This document shows positions 14,330 through 28,395 of a stretch of 64,000 bases of DNA, one piece after another; the first letter of the stretch is position 1, and every line of letters begins with the position of its first letter. The DNA comes from Bryoerythrophyllum caledonicum. Lineage: Eukaryota > Streptophyta > Bryopsida > Pottiales > Pottiaceae. The stretch covers positions 13,904,291 through 13,968,290 of the forward strand of contig OZ020515.1 of the NCBI GenBank assembly GCA_963971425.1, given 5' to 3'. The notes under the pieces are model-generated. The model ran no database searches. It was not told where the DNA came from and worked only from the letters and a program-made list of their open reading frames with translations. Both the position numbers and the translations under genes were made by a program.

Positions 14330-16884
14330 ATGGAGCGCCGTGAGGAAGCGATTAAGATTTTTGATGGAACAAAATTCGCCGTATGAAAATTTCATATGGA
14401 GATCTGCTTCGACGAGCGGGAGCTACTCGACGTTGTCAACAGCGTATCACTGCAACCGGCGCAAACCGCTCCTCTCACGGAACGTGAACCATGGACGAAG
14501 AAGAATGCTCTCGCCAGACGCATGATAAGTTCTTCTGTCACACTCCTTATCCTTGAACATCTTGTAAATTGTACTACTGTTCATAGTATGTGGAGTACAC
14601 TTTGTTCATTCTACCAGCAGAAGTCTCAAGAGAACATATACTCTGTTCAGGCGAGCTTCTTTGACTATGAGATGACCAAAGGAGATTCGATTCACACTCA
14701 TGTGAACAAAGTGATGTCGCTGGGAAACCTACTTAGAGACCTAGGTAAACTTGTCCCCGAAGAGATGTTGATCTCAAAGATTTTCTCAAGCTTACCTCCT
14801 AGTTATAACAGCATCATTCCTGCCTGGACCAACCTTGCCGAAGCTGAACGGACCGTTAAAAACCTGACTACTCGTTTTACTACAGATGGAAAATATCTTA
14901 ACCCTCCAGAACGGCGGCAACGATTTCCAAGCCGACGCAGCTTTCTACGCTCGTACTGGCCGGAACGATGATGCATCTCATTCAAAACACAGTCGACATC
15001 CCAACAAGGATCAAGAGAAGGATCGTCTAAGACAATTCAAGGAAAATTCCGTTTGCTGGAATTGTGGTAAATCCTCCCATTGGCGAGGAGAATGCCCCAA
15101 ACCTCTTCGCGTTGAATCCAAACGACCACAGACAACATCTCATCACAATTCTCGTCATAGACACAGTAATGCGCATGCTGTTACATCCCACTCTACATCG
15201 AAGTATGACTATTCTGAAAGTGACTCAAGCAATTCAGATGATAGTACCTCCTATGCTTTCATGACTGTGAATCGCTCCTCACAGGCATATAGCGTCAGCA
15301 TGGATTCAACTGTATGGTTCGCTGACAGCGGTGCTAGTGAGCACATGACAGAGCGTCGAGAGTGGTTTACAGATTTCACTCCGATAGCTCAAGGAACCTG
15401 GTCAGTTGCTGTCGCTGATGACCGCGCACTTTGGGTTTTAGGCACAGGAAATATCCAGATCATACTGACGATAAACAATAGGCAACAACGGGGCATCCTC
15501 AAGAAGGTCTTATACGTCCCTGATCTTAAGCGTAACCTATTCTCTATCGGCACCGCCTCAACTTTGGGAATTTCTTTTGTAACCCTAGGCGACACTTGTG
15601 AGCTATACCAGAATTTCGGGAAAGGGCCAAAGATCATGGAGGGTATTCGGTCAGGCAACCTATATAAACTAAGTTTTCAGCCGATCACTCATGATTCTCA
15701 GGCGATGACCACTCATTCCTCTCAGCCTTCACACGACCTTATTTTCTGGCACAATAGAATGGCTCATGTCAACTTCACAACACTGGAGGAAATGCGTACT
15801 CATAATAGCCTGATTGGTTTTACTCTCAGCAAGAGTACCCCTGTTTCTACAGTTTGCCCTGGATGTATATTTGGCAAGCAACACAAGGCAACATACCGTG
15901 TCAACCCTGAGAAACAGCGTTCACAAGTACCCGGTGAGCGCCTGCACGCTGACTTATGCTGCAGAATGACACAACCATCAATTGGAGGAGCTTCCTATTA
16001 CCTTCTAATCAAAGATGACTGCACATCTTTTCGCTTCATCTATTTCCTGAAGGCTATATCAGAGACTCAACAACTCTTCATTAAGACTATTCGTCTCACT
16101 GAACGCCTCACTGAAAACCTGGTAAAATACATCCGGACAGATTGGGGCATAGAGTTACTAAACCATACTCTCTCGGATTTTCTGGACACTTTGGGAATCA
16201 CTCGTGAAATGAGCGTTGCCTATACCCCTCAGTAGAATGGGTACGTAGAGCGAGATAACAGGACAATCATCGAATCGGCCTGTAGTATGCTTCATATGAC
16301 TAAATTGCCTCTCACTCTATGGGCTGAAGCCGTTCACACAGCTGTCCACGTTCTAAACAGAACCATCAATTCTCAGGTTGGATCTACAACACCTTACGAA
16401 TTGTGGCATAAACGAAAGCCAAGTGTTGAACACTATCGGATATTCGGGACTGTAGCCTACACTTTCATAGACAAAACTCATCGCACCAAGTTCCAACCTC
16501 ATGGACAACGAAACATTTTTGTTGGATATAGCGACACCAGCAAAGCTTGGCGTTTCTGGAGGCCTGGAACTTCAACAGTAATTGAGCGATCGGATGTTAT
16601 CTTCGACGAGAAAACCTTCTATTCCCCAAACCTGTTTTCTATCAAAGAAACCACATCACCTGAATCGCCCTATGCTTTTTTTCCAGATTATTCGTCAGTT
16701 CACACAGGAGACTCCAATTCTTTAAGTGACACAATTCCTATAGTCCCAGTAGGAGCTCCAATGAACTTTGACTTAACAACTACTAGGTCTGACTTTGACT
16801 CAAGTCCACTAGTGGGAGATCCTATCACAAGTTGTTCAGCTGACACTACCGAAGTTCAAACCTCTGCTACTGAATTTACAATGC
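14330..16884 (+). pseudogene. copia-2 Gag-PR-IN, 5' part of broken polyprotein
   Basis: Starts at ATG 14330 (MERREEAIKIFDGTKFAV). TGA at 14384 replaces a Trp in the conserved FAVWK-type Gag motif. A frameshift near 14886-14970 separates Gag from the zinc knuckle CWNCGKSSHWRGEC. Then follow protease WFADSGASEHM, pre-integrase FWHNRMAHVNF with CPGCIFGKQH, and the integrase core (RLHADLCC, KDDCTSFRF). TAG at 16233-16235 replaces Gln in the TPQQNG motif. The coding then runs to the nested element at 16885. Together with 28396-30248 it makes one dead copia polyprotein. Confidence 0.88.
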
Positions 16885-17255
16885 TGTCAGGTTCGACGCG
16901 TTGGAGGGTTTGTGGAGGTTGGTTTACGCGTTGTAAACCAACTAGGAGGTTAAATGGCCCAAGGAAACCCTGGATGCTAGCTTTAGTTGTTAATTAGAGT
17001 TAGTGTTAGTGTGCTTTGACTTTTAGGGCCTTGGTGGTGTCTTTTGACACCTCATTTGGAACTTGGAGTCCAAATGACCTCCACGTGTAGTGTGGGGAGA
17101 CTCATCTTTCTCAAGTTGAGTCTCCCACGTGATGGAGTGAGAGAGTGCGTGCTTGTGTGCACTTCTTAAACTTCATTGTTATTATGCGACCATTCTTTAA
17201 GAATGGCATTGGCTTGACTATGTGTAGTTTATGAGTATTTTCTACTTGTTTATTA
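16885..17255 (+). repeat. Terminal repeat segment A1 of the DNMT element
   Basis: 371 bp equal in length to A2 (27789-28159), with two visible substitutions. It is rich in hairpins: GTTGGTTTAC/GTAAACCAAC at 16918-16942, GGTGTC/GACACC at 17036-17051, an imperfect one at 17055-17074, GGGAGACTCA/TGAGTCTCCC at 17095-17126 and CCATTCTT/AAGAATGG at 17190-17206. Confidence 0.9.
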
Positions 17256-18180
17256 CTTGAGAAAGATCACCACTTTGATAATGAGTGTAGTCTTAGTGGA
17301 TTTTTAACACTTAAAACCTTCAAAATCTTGTGTTTGAGGTGTTTTTGAGCAATGTTTTAGTGCTGAAATTTTGATGCAAAACCTCAAGCATACTTAGAAA
17401 AGATGGATGAGGTTCATTAGATAAGGTTAGAGGAGGGGTGGTGGAGAGTGACTTTCCACTACACGCAGATGAAGATCCGTTGACTTGTCGTCATCCGAGG
17501 ATGAAAAAGTAGATCCACTTTGTTAGGAGCCAGTTGACGTTGAGAGGCTCTGCGGGGAAGCGGACGAGCTGGTGCTTGCGGAACTTGGTGCTGGCGAAGG
17601 CGGCGTTCGGTGGTTGCAGGTGCGGCTGGTGGTGCGCGCGTTGTATGGGCTTGGATCTGGAGCAGCCGGTGAGCGCGTCCGCGGCGACGTCGTTACAGGG
17701 TACTGGCTGTCTTCCGCGCCACTAGTCTCCATCCGGCCTGGGTGACCTTGACAGTGCACCACATCAGGGAAGACACGTATCCCGCGATGATACCCGTGAG
17801 CAGCATTCCTCGAGACGCCGAGGACGTGAACCCCAACACTGCGAACAGGATGGCCAGAATCTGGACTCCGTCGCCCACCACTACGCAGAGCAGCAGAGGG
17901 TTCTGCGGAACACGGAAGACGTCACCAACTACCAGTTCCATCCTGAGAGCTCCCGGTTCATGAGGGCGAGCTTGTGCGCGCTTGCATAGAGTGTCGGTTG
18001 AGTGAGTTTTGGGTGATAGGGTTTGGGGCGTTTGAGAGGGAAATGGGCTCCACGAAGCGCACCGAGGTGCGCTGCTGCGGGAGACAGTAGGTGCGCTATG
18101 GCAATGGAGGGTGTCGGTAGGGACCTGCTTGGGAGTCCGATCAACGGGGTGCCACGGCCGACACACGTTTGAGCGAGGTG
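17256..18180 (+). other. DNMT element leader, first part, with antisense host-gene fragment
   Basis: Non-coding on the plus strand. The position after A1 should hold the primer-binding site, but CTTGAGAAAGATCACC there matches no plant tRNA 3' end that I recognise. The antisense TM9SF-like fragment occupies 17705-17941. Confidence 0.6.
17705..17941 (-). pseudogene. Captured fragment of a TM9SF (nonaspanin/EMP70) gene, antisense to the element
   Basis: Translation from 17941 on the minus strand gives GDVFRVPQNPLLLCVVVGDG, then ILFAVLGFTSSASRG, then IIAGYVSS. This follows the TM9SF block GDVFRPPRNP..LLSV..G.GVQ and FA.LGFLSP.NRG, ending in the next membrane helix with GYVS/ARLY. TM9SF proteins are nine-span endomembrane proteins with a large lumenal domain. 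Only about 80 residues are present, with small internal losses and no continuation in the neighbouring frames. It is GC-rich compared with the flanking LTR. I infer a host sequence picked up by the retrotransposon, or inserted into its leader. Confidence 0.62.
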
Positions 18181-18559
18181 CTTCATTTTAAGTTTGGAGC
18201 GCTCCTGGGGCGAGTGTGTGGGGACCGAGTGTGAGGACCGAATGTGAAGACCGAGTGTGTGAGGCAGCGAGGGAGAAGCACAGACATGGGAGGTGAGACG
18301 CGGTAAGTGACGGAGTGAGTGTGCTCTTGGAGTTGTTGCGAGATCGGCGGGTGTGTGTGGATTGAGAGGAGAGCCGGTGATTTTAGGAGTGGGATTTCGT
18401 AGTTCCTACGAGTGCAGATGTTCGGGATTTTTGCATCATCGTATCTGTGCGCACAGACAACCGTTGACAGGGCGGCACAGACAGAGTTCGTTCGACTGTA
18501 TCCTACCCGACACTTATTGCTACTTGGCACTAACCTATACCCAACCCCTCCAAGTACCC

Positions 18560-19280
18560 GGCATTGAGTTTGATAACCGGTAATATGTTTGAGACCCGGA
18601 CCTTGTTCTTGAGACCCGGACCTTGTTATTGAGACCCGGTTCCCATCTGATACCCGCCTTTTGGACTGATACCCGTACCCGTTGCTTATACCCGTATACG
18701 CGACTGATACCCGTTCGTCGGCTGATACCCGATCCACTCGATACCCGGTTTGTGCTACTGGTACCCGACTGATTATAATTATACCCGGTGTGGGGGTTCG
18801 ATAACCGGGCAAGTGTTTATACTCTGGGTAGAGTATATACCCGGGGCAGTGTTTATACTCGGGGTAGAGTGGATATCCGGGGCAGGGTTTGTACCCGGGT
18901 CTATGGGTTGATATCCGGGTTTGGGTTTATACCCAGACAAGCGAGAGATACTCGGCAAGAAGAGCCGGTACCCGCGTGTGGTACGATACTCAATTTGAGC
19001 TTATACCTGGTTGTGATTGATACCTTTATCCGCATTTACACTTGGTACCCTGATATTGGTGTAGAAACCCGGTGTTGTGATGATACCCACCTGGATTAGT
19101 GACACTCGTATATGTGACTGATATCCGGTGCTTGGTTTAAACTTGGTCCCTTGGTTGTTGACCGGCTGTGGGATTGATGACCTGCAGTCGTGTTGATAAC
19201 CAGCAGTCGGGTTGATGACCGGCTGTGGGGGTTGGTAACCGAGACTGGGACCATATTAAGTGGTAGCCATACCCGCATGA
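18560..19280 (+). repeat. Degenerate 16-21-bp tandem array, core GATACCCGG, in the DNMT element leader
   Basis: About 35 successive units begin with variants of GATACCCGG or GAGACCCGG (TTATACCCGGGG, GATAACCGGGC, GATATCCGGG), spaced 16-21 bp apart. Spacers vary while the core is retained. Many units contain CCGG or CCCGG, so CpG is strongly enriched. It lies upstream of ORF0 and spans no long ORF in sense. Just upstream (18200-18280) a shorter phrase, GACCGAGTGTG, also repeats. Confidence 0.8.
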
Positions 19281-19460
19281 GGTTTAGGTAGGGTTTGCGT
19301 ATGAGATTACCCGAGTACCAACATTGACTACCAGGAGATTGAAGCTGATTTCATATTCATAGCACCTGGTGGAGGGAAAAGTGGATTCGTGGAAGCTTGC
19401 AGGAACACTATTACCATGGTTTGAGGGTTTCAAGGTTAGTTGGCACTCTAATTATGGACC

Positions 19461-19958
19461 ATGGACGGAAGAGGTAAGTCCAAGAAACCCGAGAAGGCTA
19501 GTGGGCCGAAGGTGGAAATTGATGGTGAGGTGTTGGACACCTTGATCGATTGTTTGCAGAGCCTACGAGTGAAAGGTTCCCCAGCCACAGCAAGTGGTAG
19601 CCACGGGAACTTTGAACTTTCTCCCATAGCAAAATCTCGCTCGGGGCCTCAGAGTTTGCACAAACCAGGCACGAAGGTGTTGAGTGCGGAATCCGTAAAG
19701 TACTGGACTTCCTTAGGTGGGGTCGAGAAAATCCGCTCACTTCGGGTGAAGGAGGGAATTTCAGCACCGTTGTGCCGTGCTCGTGGGCAAGTGGGCGTCG
19801 AAGATTTGGTAACTGGAGGTAAGGCCGTGGTTCTTCGAAATTCTGGATCCAGATATGGTGTAGAGGTCGAGGATTTTTCTTCAGGCATCCAGTTACCCAC
19901 CTTCTCACTCATTTTCACGGAGTTCGAGAGCGAAGGATTTTTATTCCACACTACCTAG
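19461..19958 (+). CDS. ORF0 of the DNMT element (Gag leader or separate small protein)
   Basis: 165 codons from ATG 19461, ending at TAG 19956-19958. The same frame stays open for a further 47 codons to a second TAG at 20100-20102. The product is basic at the start (MDGRGKSKKPEK) with no recognised domain. The Gag frame begins after TGA 20078-20080 in the -1 frame relative to ORF0, with a 20-odd base overlap and no own ATG near its start. A consensus 5' splice site GAG|GTAAGT lies at 19473/19474, just after the fourth codon. ORF0 may be an N-terminal part of Gag reached by frameshift and readthrough, or an intron that splicing removes. The function is unknown. Confidence 0.5.
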   Translation: MDGRGKSKKPEKASGPKVEIDGEVLDTLIDCLQSLRVKGSPATASGSHGNFELSPIAKSRSGPQSLHKPGTKVLSAESVKYWTSLGGVEKIRSLRVKEGISAPLCRARGQVGVEDLVTGGKAVVLRNSGSRYGVEVEDFSSGIQLPTFSLIFTEFESEGFLFHTT

Positions 19959-20083
19959 CAGTGGGAGATTAACACGTGGCAGGAGCGTGCCTCGAGTGTG
20001 TGGGATACTCTTACCTTAGAGTTATTGGACTGGGAAGTCACACCTACGATTTATGCTCCAGAGATGAGAGGAACCCATGAGGC

Positions 20084-23000
20084 TTGGCATTTGTTCGAGT
20101 AGATCACGAAACTAGCAATCTGGAGAACTGGAAGGGTCCCGGGTTTACACGTAGAAACACCCCCTTCTCAGTAGATGCTAGTGAGAGAGTGTTGTCTGAA
20201 ATTCGTGGTCAATCGGAAGAGGTAGAGGAGAGTGCTTTGCCACTGGTGGAAGAGGAGGAATTTTTAGAAAGCCTGCAAGTGAGTGTTCAGGTTCCAGTCT
20301 TACCCATAAAGCCTTACCAATCATATTTTGATTGGGAGGAAATGGCTTCACCATATGGAGGTGGAGAAAGAGGGGTGCAAAGATTTTCAGGTGCCACGGG
20401 CACCATCGAAGTCGATGACTTCAAGAGGGAGTTCACCATGTGGTGTGAACTCCAGAAGTCACGTAACCCCAACTTTAATCCGTATATGGTGTGGAGGGCC
20501 TTGTTTGGGTGTCTAGAGGGAGCGCCACTGGCGGACTACGGAGAGTTCGAGGCATCTCATTTCACCGAAATCATGGCCTGGAGGGACTTCTATGCACCGA
20601 ACTACGTGGACGTGTTCGGTGGAGCACCGAAGGTGACACCCCCACTGTTGTCTAAGGGGAAGATGGAGGAAGGCACGAGCTCAACGGAGGATGTGGAGCA
20701 GCCAGAGGTACTGGTAAATCATCCACCTCCATTCAATCCCACCTTGGGATTCTTCGTGCAACTCTATAGAGATTACCAAGGACAGAGGGCAGATAAGATG
20801 AAGGCCCTTCGTTCCTTCACACGTGGAGGTGACGAGTCTCTGAGAGAGGCTCATGCGAGATTAAGGAGACTAATTTCAGCCACTCACGGAGTTACAGAAC
20901 AACAGGCAGTGCAACATTGGTACAGTATCCTGGATAAGGAGTTGAAGACCTTGGTTTGCAATGAGGCGTTGCGATTGGGTGTACCCACGACACTACGGTT
21001 TGTTTTTGAGACCTCGGAGCGGATTGAGATAAACTTACTGGAAGAGAAGGCAGCCATGGGTTTTTTCAAACGTGAGAAGAAGGTCCCAGAGAAGGTTAAG
21101 GTGGCCAAGGTGGCCATTCCTTCGTATACTGCGGAGTCTGGTGCCTTGTGCTTCAAATGTGGGAAGCCAGGACATCAGAGGAAGGATTGCAAGGAAGGCA
21201 AGACCTCCACACCTCAGACTGGAGGTTTTTGCTCGGGTTGTGGTGCCAAGGGGCATGCAGAGGCCAGCTGTTGGAAGCTCCATCCAGAGTTGAAGCCCAC
21301 GGGGAGTAAGGGAGCTAAAGGAGGCAAGGACAAGGAGTCCAAGACTACTGGAGGGGAGAAGAAGAGTTGGAAGGCCAAATTTGCCGAGTTGGAGGCCAAG
21401 ATGGAAGCTATGAGTGCCAATACCAATGTGGTAGGTAGCATGCCTCAGGTTACTCCCAGTTTTCATGCTGGGGGCGGGTTTAGCTCCGTAGATGATGAAT
21501 TTGGAGACTTTATGTTAAGTGGTATGGCACTTGCCATCAGGGATGGCACACAGGAGGCCTATGCCCTCACACGGAGTCATACTTCAAGTTCTAAGGATGT
21601 TCCACGTGGAGCTAGTCCAACTCTGGATCCTCACCATGGAAAGGATAATCGACAAGCCAGGTTGCCTCAATCCTTCACGTTAGAAGAGATGGTACCAACG
21701 TCATCTATGGTACCTCCACCACGACCAGTGGCAACCTCCACACAAGCCTTACCACGAGCTGGAGGACTCAGAGGAGGTTCTGGAGCACTTATGGAGGCAA
21801 CTACTTCCGTGTGGGAAGCCTCGTTATTTTCTACTAAGATGTTGTCACAGGATGGCTTCAGTGTGGCAGAGGTCTTCAAAAGTGTGGCCTCAATGTGTGA
21901 GTTAGACAACTCCCCGGGCGTTAATGTGTTGAAGACAGAGATAATCCAGGCAGAGAAGAGCCAGAGTGACAACGTGGAGGGGCTGCTTTCAGCAGCCATG
22001 CGTGTGAAGACAATGGCCGCTAGACCTGCGATTGAGAGATCATCCATTACCCCTGGTGTGGTAGTGGTTGATAATTCCCAATGTATTTTCCAACTCGTTG
22101 GGCCTAAGGGGAAGATATTTGTACCTCGACGTGTGCTTCTGGATTCGGGAGCTCAACCTTTGATGTTGGGAGCGTCAGCTATGGAAGGGTTGGGATTAAC
22201 TGGGGATACTTTGGAGAAGTGTCCCTGGACCATTAGCACATCCATGGGGGGTACTGAGCAAGCTACAGGGATCACAAGGGCTGAGTTGGTGTTACAACTC
22301 AACCAAAGTGATGTGGCATATGCCAGTTCTATGAAGGTGAAGGCAATCGTTACGGAGGCCAAGTCGTATGATGTCTTGGTGGGCTCGGCGGTGCTATACC
22401 CTATGGGATTCACCTTGGATTTTTGGGAGGAGTCAGCAAGCTATAGACCAGGATGGCAAGCAGGAGATGGGCGGAAGGCTCAGCTGCCAGCTCGATTTGT
22501 TCGAGTTCTTACTGGTAACTTCGCTGATCTGTTTGCCTTCTCTGGATGTATGAACATGAAACCTTCATGGTTTCAGACAGGTTTTGAGGATCCGTCTATG
22601 GGTGACCACATTTCAACGAAGGTGGATGTCTATATGGGCAACACAAGTGGTGGAGAGGAAGAAGGATACAAACCTGGGATTGAGGCGGCGTGGAGTAACA
22701 CCATCCAGTTGAGGGAGGCCGCAGAGTTAGCAGTGGAAGAGGCATGGCAACAATCTATGCTACCACAGATGCAACATGAGACTGGAGTTGACCAAGACAT
22801 GAGACCTCCGTTAGACATTGCTACTATCCATTGGAAGGCACCAATGGATGGTATCGTATTATTGGAGCTCTTCGGAGGAATTGGCACAGGCTTGGCAACT
22901 GTTTTACAAGCTGGGATCAAGGTTAAGCGCTACATTTACGTGGATGTGGATGAAACAGCAAGGCATGTGGCCAAACGTCACACACGGAGGCTGAGGACCC

Positions 23001-24196
23001 AATTCCCAGAATTGTTGGCCACTAGTGCCATCAAAACCTCCTTCTCTACACTTGTGAGTGATATTTCCTTGTTGTCAGACGATGACATTCATCGAGTGGG
23101 TCATGTGGACCTTGTAATTGCAGGATGGCCTTGCCAAGGCATGTCTATGGCAGGCAATCAGAATGGGTTAAAGGATTCACGTTCTTCCAGGTTCTTTGAC
23201 ATGATTCGAGTGATTCGAGTGCTTCAGACTTCCCAGAGGCAACCGCCTGGTTATATTGTGGAGAACGTGCCCGTGGTGAGCAGTTCGAGGTCCAGGACAC
23301 TCGAGAGTATGCATAGGATCCATCAGACTCTGGGATTGCCAGTATTAATTGATGCGGCTGCAGTAGGGTCCAGGGCACATAGACCCCGCTTGTGGTGGAC
23401 AAACCTGGCCCCAGCAGAGTTGCTACAGTCCGCGGTGGGTCGTATTAAACGCCCAGATGTGTATGTGAGTGACATTTTGGATCCTCACAGGACACCACGG
23501 CGCGTGTATCACGATGACCAGGCCCCATTAGCGTTGGTTAACCGCAAGGGAGAACCACGTAGGGCCTTGCCCACGTTGGTTAGTTTTGCAAGGTCTTATG
23601 CTTTCAAGGATAATGGACCTGGACTTGTATGGGATTCAGTGTCCCAGGAGATGGTGGAGCCAAATGCAAATGAGCAAGAGAGAGCCATGGGATTTCCCAC
23701 TGGCACCACCGATGTGCCCGGGATTTCAGAACCACAGAGACGATTTTTACTTGGTCAGGCCATGGATTTAAATTGCTTGACTTGGATTGTTTCATTAGTG
23801 GTTGCAGAACAGAAGCGGTTAGCTTCTAGTTTGACTAGTTACATGGGTTATTATGAGTTGCGGGCGGCAGGAGAACCACTTGCCTCTGTCAGGGTGACAA
23901 GCAAGGTGGTTGGGGGCGAGAGGGCCCTTGCACCTCATCCATGGAACATGTGGGATAACGCAAATATTTTTGCGACCACCAAGGCAACAGATCTTCACTA
24001 TGGAGGGGAGAACTGGAGTGAAGGCAACAGATTGGCTCACCAGAGGATGGATTTGGAGGATGTTGTGGAGAAGATCTTCTTGGAAGAACACACAGCTCTT
24101 CACATGGAAGAAATTGATAAATTGGGTCAATTGGAAGGACTTGGGAGTGTTATTGAGGAAGAAGGAGGGGAGTCTCCTTCACTGGGGATTCAATAG
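20084..24196 (+). CDS. Gag-protease-DNA (cytosine-5) methyltransferase polyprotein of the DNMT element
   Basis: An open frame of 1370 codons; the first in-frame near-start codon is TTG at 20084, so the true start is probably upstream by frameshift or splicing. Gag (about residues 80-330) is followed by zinc knuckles CFKCGKPGHQRKDC (about 355) and CSGCGAKGHAEASC (about 382), then a retropepsin with LLDSGAQ (about 686). At about 920-1250 lies a full C5-MTase: motif I LLELFGGIGTGLATVL, motif IV DLVIAGWPCQGMSMAG with the catalytic Pro-Cys (about 1014), motif VI IVENVP, motif VIII GSRAHRPRLWW, motif IX ERAMGFPTGTTD and motif X LGQAMDLNCL. The order I to X is not permuted, unlike plant DRM enzymes, so it is DNMT3-like. 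No PWWP or ADD domain is visible. All key residues are kept, so the enzyme may be active on DNA in the nucleus or in virus-like particles. The frame ends at TAG 24194-24196. Confidence 0.9.
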   Translation: MAFVRVDHETSNLENWKGPGFTRRNTPFSVDASERVLSEIRGQSEEVEESALPLVEEEEFLESLQVSVQVPVLPIKPYQSYFDWEEMASPYGGGERGVQRFSGATGTIEVDDFKREFTMWCELQKSRNPNFNPYMVWRALFGCLEGAPLADYGEFEASHFTEIMAWRDFYAPNYVDVFGGAPKVTPPLLSKGKMEEGTSSTEDVEQPEVLVNHPPPFNPTLGFFVQLYRDYQGQRADKMKALRSFTRGGDESLREAHARLRRLISATHGVTEQQAVQHWYSILDKELKTLVCNEALRLGVPTTLRFVFETSERIEINLLEEKAAMGFFKREKKVPEKVKVAKVAIPSYTAESGALCFKCGKPGHQRKDCKEGKTSTPQTGGFCSGCGAKGHAEASCWKLHPELKPTGSKGAKGGKDKESKTTGGEKKSWKAKFAELEAKMEAMSANTNVVGSMPQVTPSFHAGGGFSSVDDEFGDFMLSGMALAIRDGTQEAYALTRSHTSSSKDVPRGASPTLDPHHGKDNRQARLPQSFTLEEMVPTSSMVPPPRPVATSTQALPRAGGLRGGSGALMEATTSVWEASLFSTKMLSQDGFSVAEVFKSVASMCELDNSPGVNVLKTEIIQAEKSQSDNVEGLLSAAMRVKTMAARPAIERSSITPGVVVVDNSQCIFQLVGPKGKIFVPRRVLLDSGAQPLMLGASAMEGLGLTGDTLEKCPWTISTSMGGTEQATGITRAELVLQLNQSDVAYASSMKVKAIVTEAKSYDVLVGSAVLYPMGFTLDFWEESASYRPGWQAGDGRKAQLPARFVRVLTGNFADLFAFSGCMNMKPSWFQTGFEDPSMGDHISTKVDVYMGNTSGGEEEGYKPGIEAAWSNTIQLREAAELAVEEAWQQSMLPQMQHETGVDQDMRPPLDIATIHWKAPMDGIVLLELFGGIGTGLATVLQAGIKVKRYIYVDVDETARHVAKRHTRRLRTQFPELLATSAIKTSFSTLVSDISLLSDDDIHRVGHVDLVIAGWPCQGMSMAGNQNGLKDSRSSRFFDMIRVIRVLQTSQRQPPGYIVENVPVVSSSRSRTLESMHRIHQTLGLPVLIDAAAVGSRAHRPRLWWTNLAPAELLQSAVGRIKRPDVYVSDILDPHRTPRRVYHDDQAPLALVNRKGEPRRALPTLVSFARSYAFKDNGPGLVWDSVSQEMVEPNANEQERAMGFPTGTTDVPGISEPQRRFLLGQAMDLNCLTWIVSLVVAEQKRLASSLTSYMGYYELRAAGEPLASVRVTSKVVGGERALAPHPWNMWDNANIFATTKATDLHYGGENWSEGNRLAHQRMDLEDVVEKIFLEEHTALHMEEIDKLGQLEGLGSVIEEEGGESPSLGIQ

Positions 24197-24202
24197 CAAC
24201 CA
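24191..24202 (+). promoter_or_regulatory. Predicted UAG readthrough site between the Gag-PR-DNMT and Pol frames
   Basis: The junction reads CAA TAG CAA CCA. This fits the known tobamovirus-type readthrough rule UAG-CAR-YYA, including the CAA codon before the stop. Pol follows in the same frame with no other stop. The first in-frame Pol ATG comes only about 80 codons later, inside the RT region, so suppression of this UAG is the simplest way to make Pol. Confidence 0.75.
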
Positions 24203-27200
24203 AGGGTGGAAAACCCTGCTTCAAAGGAACCGAAGGAGGTGGTGACCAAGGACACTTGGAAACCAAGAGTAGGCCTGGCAGATGGAGCAGTGGAGGTGGA
24301 GGAACATGAGTTCCTGAAGGAGTATTTAGATTGTTTTGCTTTCAGTTTACATGATTTGGGAGTGTCGAAGGGGCAAGAAGTGCGTATTAACTTAACCGAC
24401 GAAGCACCAATTTATAGAAAGCCATACAAGTACAGCGACATGGAGCGGAAGATGATTCGTGCTCGCACTGAAGAATTGATGGCTGCAGGGTTGGTGGAGT
24501 TGGCTCCTCCAGATTGTGAGTATGCATCAGCAACGGTTATGCCATCCAAGAAGGACGTTTACGGTAATTGGACTGAGAAAAGGATGTGTGGTGACTATAG
24601 GAGAATTAATAAATTCACTAAATCAGACCGTTATGCAATGCCAACTCCTGAGGAGAACTTTGAGGCCATTGGCCATGCCAAGGTGTTTAGTACGTTGGAT
24701 TTACGCTCTGGATACCACCAGATTGGATTGAGAGAGGAAGACAAGGAGAAAACCGCGTTCTGGGGCATTGATAGGGATGGGAAGGACCGGTTGTTTCAAT
24801 GGAAGTTTCTACCGTTTGGATTGAAGAATGCTCCAGCAGAATTTCAAAGGGTCATGGACAGAGTATTCTCGGGGTTGGATTTCGTGAGATGCTATATTGA
24901 TGACATCATTGTCTTTAGCAAGAATCGAAAACAACATAGACTACACTTGATGGAGGTTTTTGCTAGATTGAGGCTTCATGGATTAAAGTTGCACCCTGGT
25001 AAGTGCAAATTCTACTTTGATCGCATTGAATATTTAGGCCACATGATTTATCCAAGTGGATTAGGTGTGGTAGCTAGCAAAGTGGAAGTAGTGATGTCTA
25101 TTCCTAGACCACGAGATGTTAGTAGGTTGAGAGCATTTCTGGGGTTGTGTAACTATTATAGAAAGTTTGTCAAAACTTTCAGTGCCATTGCCAAGCCATT
25201 AACCATGTTGACAAGGAATGATCAACCTTGGATCTGGGGAAATGAGCAAGAGGCGGCCTTTCAACAATTGAAAGATCGTTTGGCATCAGCACCAATACTT
25301 CGGAGGCCTATAGCAGGGAGGACATACCAGCTACACACAGATTGGAGCTCGTTGGGGATTGGTGCAGTCTTGACGCAAATGGATGATGATGGTAAGGAAT
25401 TTGTGATTGCGTATGCCAGCCGGTCCAACAACAATGCTGAGGCTCAGTATAGCTCGTATGAGGGAGAATGCTTGGCTGCGATATGGGCAATTGCTCATTT
25501 TCGATGTTATCTTTATGGTAACGAATTTCTGTTAGTTACAGATCACCAGCCGTTGAAATGGTTGATGGAGTCTGATAAATTAACAGGAAAATTGGCACGA
25601 TGGGCCTTGATGTTGATGGAGTATGATTTCAAGGTGGTTCATAGGGCAGGTTTGGTTAATTTGGATGTAGATGGCCTTAGCCGCAATCCAATTCCAAACC
25701 AAGAGGATGATACAGGTGCCAGGTGGCATACTGAAGGTGAAACCGATCCGTTGCCAAGTTGGCATTGTTCGGGTTTTCTGGGAATATTGGCATTGAATGG
25801 AGACACCACCGGGGAAGCTACTGTGGCCACAGTAGATGAGGATGGAGGTGAGGAGTCAGGGGGCGCCAGAGATATTCATGAAGACACGAATGTGATGCAG
25901 TTCTTGCAAGATGGAGAAACGGTGGCTTCATGGTCTCATAAGGAGAAAGATAGGGTTCTACAACGAGCTAAGAGGTTTGTGTGGGAGAGGACTCATCTTG
26001 TGAGAGTGTGGCCAGATGGTACTAAGAAGGTAGTACCAACTCCAATAGAAAGAGTGAAACTGATTAAAGACACACATGAGGACCTTGGACACTTTGGAGT
26101 GCGGAGGACTTATAGTCTACTTCAGATTCACTACTGGTGGCGTCGAATGCAATCCCAAGTGCAAGCTCTAGTGGCTCGGTGTATGGTGTGTGACCGGGTA
26201 CGAGCGTCTTTCAACGCTCCAATGCCTCAGTTACAACCTTTGCCAATTATGGGCTTAGGATATAGATGGAGCTTGGATTTTGCAGGTCCATTGCCAGTGA
26301 CACCTCGACACAACAAGTATGTGTTGGTAATCATCGAGCATTTCTCGAAATGGATAGAGTTAGTGGCATTACCTGATAAGTTTAGTGAGGGAGCTGCATA
26401 TTCATTTCTTGACCGTGTTCTGAGTCGCTTTGGAGCTCCAGCAGAGGTACTTACAGACCAAGGAAGAGAATTCTTGGGTGAGTTTCAGACGTTGTGTGAG
26501 CAAGCGATGATAGATCATCGCACTACTTCGAGGGATCACCCCGAAGCAGATGGATTGGCGGAGCGTATGGTGCAAACCGTCAAGAGGGGGCTCCGGAAGT
26601 ACAGCTTGAAGAAAGGACATCACCAGGATTGGGATTTACAGCTACCATGGATAGCAATGGGCTATCGGTTCAGCAAACAGGCATCCTTGGCGTCTTTTTC
26701 ACCTTACTATCTATTGTTTGGAAGGCACCCGGTTTTACCGAAGGCCATTCAAGCAGATGCTGACACCGTGTTGGCTAACATGGACAATCCAGACACGTGG
26801 GCTCAAGTGTGTGAGCAACGTGCAGAGTTGTTCAAAAGGGTGATGCCTATGGCATTGGAGAACCTCTCCATTGCTCAACATCGAGATACGTTGCGCTATG
26901 CTACAATTCGGGGAGGTGGTTATCGACCGCAGGTGCGGCGTTTCACACCTGGAGACTATGTGTATTTGCAGCAAGCAGCGCCCACCACCTTGGATGTGAC
27001 AGCAGGAAGGGTAATCTTGAGAGTTCGTGAGGTGAAGGACTCAGGAGTGTTAGTGTTGGAGGGTCGTGATGGCAAGAAGTGGAAGGATCACACACGTAAT
27101 TGTGCACCTTGTCACTTGCCACACATTGATGGGACAATACACCCTGGTCTCTCTCACATCTCTGCTGGATTACGTTGTCGGTTGTGTGGTAGTGCCAAAA

Positions 27201-27322
27201 GGGCAGCCACTATGGTTATTTGTGACTTATGTTCTACGGGGTGGCATTTAGAATGCTTAACTCCACCTCTGTTGGAAGTACGAGTGGATCAATGGTCTTG
27301 TCCTGAATGTTTAGCACGTTGA
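24197..27322 (+). CDS. Pol of the DNMT element: RT, RNase H, integrase, PHD finger
   Basis: In frame with the upstream polyprotein across TAG 24194-24196. RT: FSTLDLRSGYHQI, LPFGLKNAPAEFQ and the catalytic YIDD (about residue 229 counted from 24206). RNase H: HTDWSSLGIGAVL (about 377), YEGECLAAIWA and TDHQPL. Integrase: HHCC zinc domain (HEDLGHFG to CMVCDRVR, about 625-663), catalytic blocks SLDFAGPLPVT (about 689), LTDQGREF (about 750) and DHPEADGLAERM (about 786). After a GPY/F-like basic domain the protein ends with a PHD finger (about 990-1038): CRLC, ICDLC, GWHLEC and WSCPEC supply the C4-H-C3 zinc ligands. PHD fingers usually read histone H3 tails. It stands where chromoviruses carry a chromodomain, so a role in choosing integration sites is likely but unproven. 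No internal stop or frameshift is seen. Confidence 0.92.
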   Translation, partial: QPRVENPASKEPKEVVTKDTWKPRVGLADGAVEVEEHEFLKEYLDCFAFSLHDLGVSKGQEVRINLTDEAPIYRKPYKYSDMERKMIRARTEELMAAGLVELAPPDCEYASATVMPSKKDVYGNWTEKRMCGDYRRINKFTKSDRYAMPTPEENFEAIGHAKVFSTLDLRSGYHQIGLREEDKEKTAFWGIDRDGKDRLFQWKFLPFGLKNAPAEFQRVMDRVFSGLDFVRCYIDDIIVFSKNRKQHRLHLMEVFARLRLHGLKLHPGKCKFYFDRIEYLGHMIYPSGLGVVASKVEVVMSIPRPRDVSRLRAFLGLCNYYRKFVKTFSAIAKPLTMLTRNDQPWIWGNEQEAAFQQLKDRLASAPILRRPIAGRTYQLHTDWSSLGIGAVLTQMDDDGKEFVIAYASRSNNNAEAQYSSYEGECLAAIWAIAHFRCYLYGNEFLLVTDHQPLKWLMESDKLTGKLARWALMLMEYDFKVVHRAGLVNLDVDGLSRNPIPNQEDDTGARWHTEGETDPLPSWHCSGFLGILALNGDTTGEATVATVDEDGGEESGGARDIHEDTNVMQFLQDGETVASWSHKEKDRVLQRAKRFVWERTHLVRVWPDGTKKVVPTPIERVKLIKDTHEDLGHFGVRRTYSLLQIHYWWRRMQSQVQALVARCMVCDRVRASFNAPMPQLQPLPIMGLGYRWSLDFAGPLPVTPRHNKYVLVIIEHFSKWIELVALPDKFSEGAAYSFLDRVLSRFGAPAEVLTDQGREFLGEFQTLCEQAMIDHRTTSRDHPEADGLAERMVQTVKRGLRKYSLKKGHHQDWDLQLPWIAMGYRFSKQASLASFSPYYLLFGRHPVLPKAIQADADTVLANMDNPDTWAQVCEQRAELFKRVMPMALENLSIAQHRDTLRYATIRGGGYRPQVRRFTPGDYVYLQQAAPTTLDVTAGRVILRVREVKDSGVLVLEGRDGKKWKDHTRNCAPCHLPHIDGTIHPGLSHISAGLRCRLCGSAKRAATMVICDLCSTGWHLECLTPPLLEVRVDQWSCPECLAR

Positions 27323-27554
27323 GGGTCTGAGTGGACAAGGTCTAGCATTAAAAATATGTTAGAGGCGATTAACGATGGGGCTCTACTTGCACCCGGCCTA
27401 CCCTTTGTTTGTTAAGTCTTTTAGCCCTTTTTCATGTGGATTACAGTGATTCTATGGTTTTGAGAGGTTTTCATTCGCGGTTATCATTCAGTTTACATGT
27501 AAACTGTGTGGTTCGCCGGTGTGAAAGGGGCTTCAGCACGGGCGAAGGGGGCGA
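27323..27554 (+). other. 3' untranslated segment of the DNMT element with polypurine tract
   Basis: 232 bp between the Pol stop and repeat B1. The last bases, GGGCGAAGGGGGCGA (27540-27554), are purine-rich and directly abut B1. This is where a polypurine tract is expected if B1 begins the 3' terminal repeat. Confidence 0.6.
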
Positions 27555-27786
27555 GTAAAGGGGTACTTGGAGACCGCTTACTACTTCTTGGTGTACGAGG
27601 TCATGGGTCATTTATTTCTTTTTTCCCAAGTCTGGATTGCTGAAAGTGTGTAAGTGTGCATTGTATTATTGTTTTATAGAGGTAACGGTGGTGGTTATGT
27701 CACCGTTACTCTCGAGTTGTCTCTGACTGTGCGTTCTCACCTGATTAGCACGATGTTATCTTGGCACGATGTGGTTGTGCACGACA
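27555..27786 (+). repeat. Terminal repeat segment B1 of the DNMT element
   Basis: 232 bp, by eye identical to B2 (28160-28391), ending GCACGACA. Contains the hairpin GTAACGGTG/CACCGTTAC (27682-27709). A1 stops at exactly the repeat coordinate where B1 starts, so A1 plus B1 equal one full 603-bp repeat. Confidence 0.9.
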
Positions 27787-27788
27787 GC

Positions 27789-28391
27789 TGTCAGGTTCGA
27801 CGCGTTGGAGGGTTTGTGGAGGTTGGTTTACGCGTTGTAAACCAACTAGGAGGTTAAATGGCCCAAGGAAACCCTGGATGCTAGCTTTAGTTGTTAATTA
27901 GAGTTAGTGTTAGTGTGCTTTGACTTTTAGGGCCTTGGTGGTGTCTTTTGACACCTCATTTGGGACTTGGAGTCCAAATGACCTCCACGTGTAGTGTGGG
28001 GAGACTCATCTTTCTCAAGTTGAGTCTCCCACGTGATGGAGTGAGAGAGTGCGTGCTTGCGTGCACTTCTTAAACTTCATTGTTATTATGCGACCATTCT
28101 TTAAGAATGGCATTGGCTTGACTATGTGTAGTTTATGAGTATTTTCTACTTGTTTATTAGTAAAGGGGTACTTGGAGACCGCTTACTACTTCTTGGTGTA
28201 CGAGGTCATGGGTCATTTATTTCTTTTTTCCCAAGTCTGGATTGCTGAAAGTGTGTAAGTGTGCATTGTATTATTGTTTTATAGAGGTAACGGTGGTGGT
28301 TATGTCACCGTTACTCTCGAGTTGTCTCTGACTGTGCGTTCTCACCTGATTAGCACGATGTTATCTTGGCACGATGTGGTTGTGCACGACA
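27789..28391 (+). repeat. Full 603-bp terminal repeat A2-B2 of the DNMT element
   Basis: Begins TGTCAGG and ends GCACGACA, followed by the ATGC duplication. It follows B1 directly, separated only by GC (27787-27788). Its first 371 bp match A1 and its last 232 bp match B1. Confidence 0.92.
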
Positions 28392-28395
28392 ATGC

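What the first reader, a model, noticed from the sequence alone, without database searches (positions are those of the whole stretch)
20084..27322. Retrotransposon encoding both a DNA methyltransferase and a PHD finger
Gag-PR is followed by a full DNMT3-like C5-methyltransferase (PCQ, ENV, motif I and X blocks intact), and Pol ends in a C4HC3 PHD finger after the integrase. One element thus carries a methylation writer and a probable histone reader, both in open frames. Retrotransposon-borne DNMTs are known from charophytes and dinoflagellates; the writer-reader pairing and the DNMT position between PR and RT deserve attention. A self-methylating, chromatin-guided lifestyle is inference.
Basis: partly seen in the sequence, partly recalled or inferred. 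Interest (0 to 1): 0.95.

Follow-up and report, generated by a model that had tools for sequence, protein, structure and literature searches.

The report
Retrotransposon with DNA-methylating and histone-reading parts
A young, repeated jumping gene in a green-plant genome carries its own DNA-methylating enzyme and a probable histone-reading finger on its integrase; relatives with the same pair occur in other green algae and bryophytes, so this is a richer version of something already known rather than a one-off.

The parts
16881..16884 (.). left copy of target-site duplication ATGC
   Evidence: read; matches 28392-28395
16885..17255 (+). repeat A1 (371 bp, starts TGTCAGG), 5' end of the element
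   Evidence: 2 mismatches to A2 over 371 bp
17256..19450 (+). long leader with short degenerate tandem repeats (GATACCCGG-like)
19458..19958 (+). ORF0, 166 aa, no Pfam match; 70% identical homologue in one subfamily II copy, none found in one III copy
20081..24196 (+). ORF1: Gag-CCHC-PR-DNMT, ends in TAG; first ATG at 20342
21149..21196 (+). CCHC zinc knuckle (ORF1 residues 356-371)
   Evidence: E 3.5e-5
22124..22384 (+). retroviral-type aspartyl protease (ORF1 residues 681-767), weak match
   Evidence: E 0.011, below cut-off; the same segment matches PR of relatives such as P0031
22859..23812 (+). DNMT3-like C5-cytosine methyltransferase domain, motifs I, IV (PCQ), VI (ENV), VIII (HRPR), IX, X present
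   Evidence: motif names recalled
24194..24202 (+). TAG-CAA-CCA: in-frame stop in type I readthrough context (UAG-CARYYA)
24197..27322 (+). ORF2: RT-RNaseH-integrase-PHD, same frame as ORF1; first Met only at residue 82
24572..25048 (+). reverse transcriptase
   Evidence: 1.7e-32
25235..25624 (+). RNase H
   Evidence: 8.5e-35
26048..26542 (+). integrase: H2C2 zinc domain and rve (DDE) core
   Evidence: 7e-15 and 3.5e-13
27176..27310 (+). C-terminal PHD finger, C4HC3
   Evidence: (5.7e-9)
27540..27553 (+). purine-rich tract directly 5' of B1 (candidate polypurine tract), conserved in subfamilies I and II; G-rich in III
27554..27786 (+). repeat B1 (233 bp)
   Evidence: 100% identical to B2
27787..27788 (+). 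GC dinucleotide between CACGACA (B1 end) and TGTCAGG (A2 start)
27789..28158 (+). repeat A2
28159..28391 (+). repeat B2 (ends CACGACA), 3' end of the element
28392..28395 (.). right copy of target-site duplication ATGC

Best explanation
This is a young member of a Ty3/Gypsy lineage of green algae and bryophytes, of the KnitGypsy-Dnmt3 kind, that carries a DNMT3-type methyltransferase and a C-terminal PHD finger. Shown here: anatomy, conservation, repetition in the genome, integrase-type insertion, conserved stop context. Inferred: ribosomes make mainly Gag-PR-DNMT and only sometimes read through the UAG to make Gag-PR-DNMT-Pol, so the methyltransferase would be packaged at Gag level inside the virus-like particle, where it methylates the newly made cDNA de novo (probably at CG), so that the copy enters the chromosome already marked; the PHD finger, last domain of the integrase, binds the histone H3 tail and steers where the copy is inserted. 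Writer and reader then act in one pre-integration complex but on different polypeptides.
For: DNMT3 fold and complete catalytic motifs. Purifying selection on DNMT (Ka/Ks 0.04, pN/pS 0.10) and PHD (0.08, 0.12) between subfamilies I and II, near RT (0.02) and IN (0.02) and unlike the linkers (0.27, 0.39). UAG-CAA-YCA in 26 of 28 held copies of three subfamilies whose flanking protein no longer aligns between I/II and III; 93 of the first 100 of 217 genome sites with the middle codon left free are TAG; no Met in the first 81 codons of ORF2. A PHD in 16 of 18 proteins that were found by their DNMT and run at least 225 residues past the integrase. PHD kept where DNMT is lost (P0104, P0118, P0124). 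SymbioDIRS DNMTs methylate CG de novo in yeast (PMC5890265 section 10).
Against: The K. nitens relative did not methylate DNA in yeast; the authors call it inconclusive. No expression, readthrough, methylation or binding was measured here. Copies carry excess transitions at CpG and at other C/G, which host methylation could cause alone. Some lineages do without DNMT, and four Closterium proteins (P0138-P0141) and P0049 show no PHD, P0030 only a degenerate zinc-like end, so neither domain is indispensable. The PHD ligand is unknown; residue -2 from the ligand His is Gly in 84 of 90 PHDs, where H3K4me3 cages have Trp (recalled). Within subfamilies the PHD ratio is weaker (0.26, 0.65, 0.44). The PHD structure job failed and could not be repeated.
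Confidence: 0.5

Rival explanations
1. The DNMT restrains the element: it methylates new insertions so that they are silenced quickly, lowering damage to the host; the PHD is a plain targeting tether.
For: Copies show C-to-T excess at CpG (singleton transitions at 6.7% of CpG positions, 3.8% of other C/G, 1.2% of A/T), as methylated insertions do; raised as a possibility in PMC5890265 section 11.
Against: The same excess follows from host methylation. A self-silencing trait is not favoured within a cell where non-silencing copies outrun it (argument, not a result).
Confidence: 0.2
2. The DNMT-fold domain acts on RNA or as a structural or binding part of Gag, not on DNA.
For: KnitGypsy and SymbioLINE DNMTs gave no methylation of yeast DNA (inconclusive); the domain sits at the Gag side of a leaky-type stop.
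Against: Catalytic Cys, ENV Glu and RxR Arg are kept in all rows with a letter there; nearest fold is DNMT3 (a family not listed there is not excluded).
Confidence: 0.12
3. ORF2 is reached not by readthrough but by reinitiation, splicing around the stop, or only from rare copies with a sense codon.
For: 5 of the first 100 free-codon sites have a sense codon (2 CAG, 2 TCG, 1 TAC); some relatives have DNMT and RT in one ORF (P0031, P0072, P0115).
Against: 93 of 100 keep TAG, context UAG-CAA-YCA kept across subfamilies, no early Met in ORF2, same frame.
Confidence: 0.12
4. DNMT and PHD are passive cargo from a chance capture.
For: DNMT is lost in P0104/P0118/P0124; no PHD in the Closterium proteins.
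Against: Purifying selection and presence in relatives across green algae and bryophytes.
Confidence: 0.03

Closest known systems
KnitGypsy-Dnmt3, Klebsormidium nitens (de Mendoza et al. 2018, PMC5890265)
   Same: Gypsy Pol, unrearranged DNMT3-type domain, intronless copies, purifying selection on the DNMT, DIRS-like repeat layout (sections 9-11 read); K. nitens protein P0136 has the same PR-DNMT-RT-RH-IN order
   Different: PHD is not named in that paper's text (0 occurrences; figures not held), and P0136 is partial and ends before the PHD's place, so whether KnitGypsy has a PHD is open; the paper places DNMT in the Pol ORF, here it lies before a conserved UAG; another host. That P0136 is the published element is inferred from its make-up.
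SymbioDIRS-Dnmt3 and SymbioLINE-Dnmt (same paper)
   Same: retrotransposon-borne C5-MTases; the DIRS ones methylate CG in yeast
   Different: other retrotransposon orders; the paper treats them as independent captures
Chromoviruses (Gypsy with a chromodomain after the integrase)
   Same: histone-reader-type module at the integrase C-terminus
   Different: PHD finger in place of a chromodomain; no chromodomain match in ORF2 at E 0.1
Ginger1 DDE transposons of Hydra (PMC2836005, passages)
   Same: Gypsy-integrase-like transposase with a PHD in one listed family (Ginger1-9_HM)
   Different: DNA transposon with terminal inverted repeats and Ulp1; described as transposase, not as a retroelement
PAT-like DIRS elements (layout recalled)
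   Same: split direct repeats A1...B1-A2-B2
   Different: DDE integrase and 4-bp target duplications here, no tyrosine recombinase match

Membership tests
Ty3/Gypsy LTR retrotransposons | Pol order RT-RNaseH-IN with H2C2 and rve integrase | tested here: met
Ty3/Gypsy LTR retrotransposons | full LTR at both ends | tested here: not met
   5' end carries A only; layout is A1-internal-B1-GC-A2-B2; filed as a variant, as KnitGypsy was
KnitGypsy-Dnmt3 kind | DNMT3-type, unrearranged MTase inside the Gypsy polyprotein | tested here: met
KnitGypsy-Dnmt3 kind | DIRS-like repeat layout | tested here: met
   paper's legend
KnitGypsy-Dnmt3 kind | sequence kinship with the K. nitens element | tested here: met
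   P0136: 56% identical over 62% of ORF2 800-1041; DNMT segment 37% in alignment A2; the DNMT tree puts it outside the window's 23-row clade
DNMT3 methyltransferases | DNMT3-like catalytic domain, motif order I to X | tested here: met
DNMT3 methyltransferases | de novo CG methylation | not testable with these tools
   needs an assay
DNMT3 methyltransferases | N-terminal ADD and PWWP domains next to the MTase (recalled for animal DNMT3) | tested here: not met
   no such Pfam match in ORF1 at E 0.1; a catalytic-domain homologue, not a full DNMT3
PHD fingers | C4HC3 zinc ligands | tested here: met
PHD fingers | histone H3 tail binding | not testable with these tools
   best sequence matches are PHF12, KMT2C, KDM5B and CHD4 PHDs, with UHRF1 and ATXR5 further down
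DIRS retrotransposons | tyrosine recombinase | tested here: not met
   none in the Pfam scan at E 0.1; rve integrase instead
Type I stop readthrough | UAG followed by CARYYA | tested here: met
   rule from PMC5382211 passages
Type I stop readthrough | measured readthrough | not testable with these tools
   needs a reporter or proteomics

The most novel reading that the evidence does not exclude
A lineage of Gypsy elements spread through green algae and bryophytes has long carried an integrase-linked PHD reader and, in many branches, a DNMT3 writer; in the branch seen here the writer is made at Gag level through a leaky stop. Each particle methylates its own cDNA before PHD-guided integration, so that the insert lands pre-marked in chosen chromatin. 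Its cDNA would in addition be reverse transcribed with B-GC-A as the true LTR (PPT 5' of B1), joined into a circle, and opened by the integrase at CACGACA-GC-TGTCAGG, giving the permuted split-repeat form.
Probability: 0.3. Interest if true: 0.9.

Novelty: new variant of a known kind. Interest (0 to 1): 0.72.

Why it matters
Why a transposon should carry the very enzyme used to silence transposons has been open since 2018 (PMC5890265 section 11). The spread, two DNMT positions, a branch that lost DNMT but kept PHD, and bryophyte hosts (Marchantia is a laboratory plant) make it testable by comparison and genetics. The readthrough-type stop gives a concrete prediction about dose (DNMT per particle). 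If the PHD guides the integrase, it is a second, chromodomain-independent way for Gypsy elements of plants to read chromatin. [quoted passage not shown]

Tried and rejected

A search of IMG/VR for relatives gave none. L001, the best PF00145 match in the genome, is a bacterial-type methyltransferase beside an IS-type transposase, not the element; the matches beyond L001-L028 and the window were not examined one by one. Host DNMT3 proteins were wanted as an outgroup: the named entries among the 120 listed (of 293) were Calypogeia, Sphagnum and one MAG protein, and whether an unnamed hit is a host DNMT3 was not checked, so the DNMT tree is rooted on a partial DNMT3A alone, a very long branch (3.75), and the rooting is weak. 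Host species: not identified. rbcL loci C590 and C894 read as streptophyte by eye, with an accD-like ORF beside one (recall, not a test); a third rbcL (C821) was not examined.

Primer-binding site: no tRNA match was computed. Nothing in print on the PHD, the stop or bryophyte copies was seen in the listings of searches (openly licensed papers only; Repbase and most subscription journals not covered; most listed papers not opened). PMC9033089 (passages), PMC5784723 (passages; it counts five Marchantia DNMTs) and PMC3350952 (passages) held nothing on it; PMC5741210 (passages) mentions very high-coverage Cymbomonas scaffolds, with a cytosine DNA methyltransferase among their products.
Full report
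WHAT IS THERE. The window lies at G000:C2:13904291-13968290 of a 437 Mb genome in 894 contigs. The element runs from 16885 to 28391 on the + strand and sits inside a copia-like element (copia-type coding sequence, judged by eye, left and right). ORF1 (20081-24196) has a CCHC knuckle, a weak aspartyl protease and a DNA_methylase match; ORF2 (24197-27322) has RT, RNase H, H2C2, rve and a C-terminal PHD. ORF1 ends in TAG and ORF2 follows at once in the same frame. ORF2 has no Met before residue 82, so an own start is unlikely.

THE PHD FINGER. Pfam PHD 5.7e-9. All eight ligands are invariant in a 12-row alignment of relatives, and the C4HC3 pattern is found in 88 of 90 database PHDs; the misses are P0126, whose last part differs, and P0077, whose cut segment lacks the first Cys (the Cys is seen). 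Nearest solved PHDs by sequence: PHF12, KMT2C, KDM5B, CHD4, further down UHRF1 and ATXR5. Several of these read unmodified H3K4 or H3R2 (recalled); that this PHD does so is inference. Control for the search bias: one search was seeded with the PHD tail itself, so only proteins found by their DNMT are a fair test. Of those 59, 35 have no integrase, 6 end less than 225 residues after it, and of the 18 left 16 have a PHD; P0030 ends in a degenerate zinc-like stretch and P0049 shows none. Against a universal PHD: the four Closterium proteins P0138-P0141 leave the common sequence just before the PHD's place and have none (tails 228, 194, 197 and 146 residues). K. nitens P0136 is partial and ends before that place. 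Among named species I saw a PHD in Marchantia P0062, Volvox P0109 and P0113, and Haematococcus P0129 and P0134; the DNMT stretch is weak in the Volvox proteins (27-28% identity) and only 80-90 residues in P0062 and P0134.

COPIES. PF00145 gave 123 scored matches of 1054 candidates; 20 lie in open frames of at least 1300 aa, one of these flagged with an internal TGA. Of the matches, L001 is not an element; L002-L028 and the window are. The PHD tail gave 150 scored of 1766 candidates (a cap), 21 in a 1041-aa frame, two of these flagged with TGA. Twenty loci were fetched for length. They form three subfamilies: I (L009-L013, L018, L021; ORF1 95-98%, ORF2 98-99% identical to the window), II (L014-L016, L019, L020, L022-L024; ORF1 76-77%, ORF2 92-93%, 89% over a part in L015) and III (L025-L028; ORF1 about 35%, in pieces of 27% and 42% in L028; ORF2 58-63%). 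L017 is an internally deleted type-I copy, L015 and L019 lack part of ORF2, and the short loci L002-L008 are 85-97% like the window. Copies of all three subfamilies carry DNMT and PHD.

SELECTION. Window plus 19 loci (L017 dropped; 16 to 20 usable per segment), Nei-Gojobori, mean over pairs, I against II: DNMT Ka 0.067, Ks 1.68, ratio 0.04 (pN/pS 0.10); PHD 0.08 (0.12); RT 0.02; RNase H 0.01; IN 0.02; protease 0.08; PR-DNMT linker 0.27; stretch after DNMT 0.39. Copies were chosen mostly for long frames, segments with stops were left out, and Ks is near or beyond saturation in places (infinite for Gag I-II). Within subfamilies I, II, III the ratios are noisier: PHD 0.26, 0.65, 0.44; DNMT 0.14, 0.15, 0.26. 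Copies decaying after insertion would give this.

THE STOP. Of 28 held copies (window, L002-L028), 26 show TAG followed by CAACCA (I, II) or CAATCA (III); in L002 the match to ORF1 ends at residue 1189 and no junction was found, and L017 has lost it. The codons around differ between I/II and III. Genome-wide, CARTAGCAAYCANNG occurs 345 times against 22 for the reversed control. With the stop codon left free, the I/II junction occurs 217 times (control 0); of the first 100 listed, 93 are TAG, 2 TAA, 2 CAG, 2 TCG, 1 TAC (my count). UAG-CARYYA is the type I readthrough signal of tobamo-, beny- and pomoviruses (PMC5382211, passages). Database relatives also come as separate Gag-PR-DNMT proteins (for example P0004-P0009) and Pol-PHD proteins (P0061, P0063, P0065-P0071), whereas P0031 is one ORF in the same order; their DNA was not seen. 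P0063 bears a Trinity transcript name, so a Pol-PHD ORF of some relative is transcribed.

REPEATS AND INSERTION. The layout is A1-internal-B1-GC-A2-B2 with A 371 bp and B 233 bp; A1/A2 differ at 2 positions and B1/B2 at none. Of 9 copies whose two ends were sought (window, L009-L014, L018, L026), 8 begin TGTCA, end CACGACA and have 4-bp target duplications (ATGC, CCTC, TAGT, AAAT, GGCA, CCTT, AGGA, GTGC; read by eye); for L011 A1 was not found in the 901 bp fetched. So the split form is the transposing unit, inserted in the manner of a DDE integrase. A purine-rich tract directly precedes B1 in I and II, almost unchanged between them, and a G-rich one in III (three of four III copies; L025 was mis-registered by the script). 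If that is the polypurine tract, conventional reverse transcription gives B-GC-A as the LTR; joining the two ends gives the A|B junction seen in A2-B2, and opening at GC gives the permuted form. This is inference.

SPREAD. Protein searches returned 59, 83 and 293 (120 listed) proteins. Named sources: Marchantia polymorpha, Sphagnum fallax, Sphagnum troendelagicum, Calypogeia fissa, Klebsormidium nitens, Closterium, Volvox, Haematococcus, Cymbomonas; most are unnamed contigs. DNMT and PHD were seen in one protein in 39 of 259 (4 with DNMT before RT, 26 with RNaseH-DNMT-IN, the rest incomplete); most others are too short to show both. Two DNMT positions exist: PR-DNMT-RT and RNaseH-DNMT-IN. In the DNMT tree (146 segments thinned to 70, plus three of this genome and DNMT3A; quick method) all 38 RNaseH-DNMT-IN rows and one row of unknown position form one clade (97), nested among PR-DNMT-RT rows, and subfamilies I-III fall in a starred clade of 23 rows. 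In the Pol tree (43 of 50 rows kept) the 18 RNaseH-DNMT-IN elements and P0104, P0118, P0124, which have a PHD but no DNMT in the ORF, form a clade (100), the latter three nested in it. A single retro-DNMT family that changed position once and was lost at least once fits best; two captures are not excluded because the outgroup is one partial, very long branch. Both trees are quick ones.

METHYLATION FOOTPRINT. Among seven type-I copies singleton transitions hit 6.7% of CpG positions, 3.8% of other C/G and 1.2% of A/T positions; CpG observed/expected is 0.47 in ORF1 and 0.57 in ORF2 against 0.72 and 0.63 left and right of the element. This fits methylated copies; it does not say which enzyme did it.

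READING. The pairing is real and not of this copy alone, but writer and reader are on different sides of a leaky-type stop, and the DNMT position is that of the K. nitens protein. The 2018 paper (abstract, sections 9-11 and passages read) reports the DNMT, the DIRS-like repeats and purifying selection, and does not use the word PHD in its text; its figures were not held. I therefore file this as a new variant of a known kind.

Noticed in passing
L001 (G000:C14:16016358-16017317): A complete bacterial-type C5 methyltransferase (364 aa) beside an IS-type transposase inside a 22 Mb contig: bacterial insertion, transfer or assembly contamination.
   Followed up: partly
window 19458-19958: ORF0, 166 aa, lies upstream of Gag, has no Pfam match, and is 70% identical in one subfamily II copy but was not found in one III copy: an extra gene of unknown role, possibly joined to Gag.
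   Followed up: partly
L023, 3' end: A 905-bp exact direct repeat, consistent with B-A-B-A-B instead of B-A-B: extra repeat units, perhaps from recombination or concatemeric cDNA.
   Followed up: no
P0058 (unnamed contig, 22.9 kb): A protein with RVT_1, a divergent DNMT domain and a Dam-type domain (PF05869) by precomputed Pfam: a retroelement with possibly two kinds of DNA methyltransferase.
   Followed up: no
P0145: A DNMT of this lineage is deposited as a DNA cytosine methyltransferase of a Candidatus Obscuribacterales MAG; most likely eukaryotic contamination of the MAG.
   Followed up: no
P0104, P0118, P0124: Pol-PHD elements without DNMT nested among DNMT carriers: natural comparison for what the DNMT does.
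   Followed up: partly
P0138-P0141 (Closterium): Related Closterium Pol proteins end without a PHD; P0140 still has a DNMT stretch: natural comparison for what the PHD does.
   Followed up: partly
window 18216-19220: Leader region with degenerate tandem repeats (periods 13-36) around a GATACCCGG-like core.
   Followed up: no
G000 contigs C821, C590, C894: Three rbcL genes; C590 and C894 streptophyte-like by eye with different C-terminal ends, C821 in a 516-aa frame not examined.
   Followed up: no
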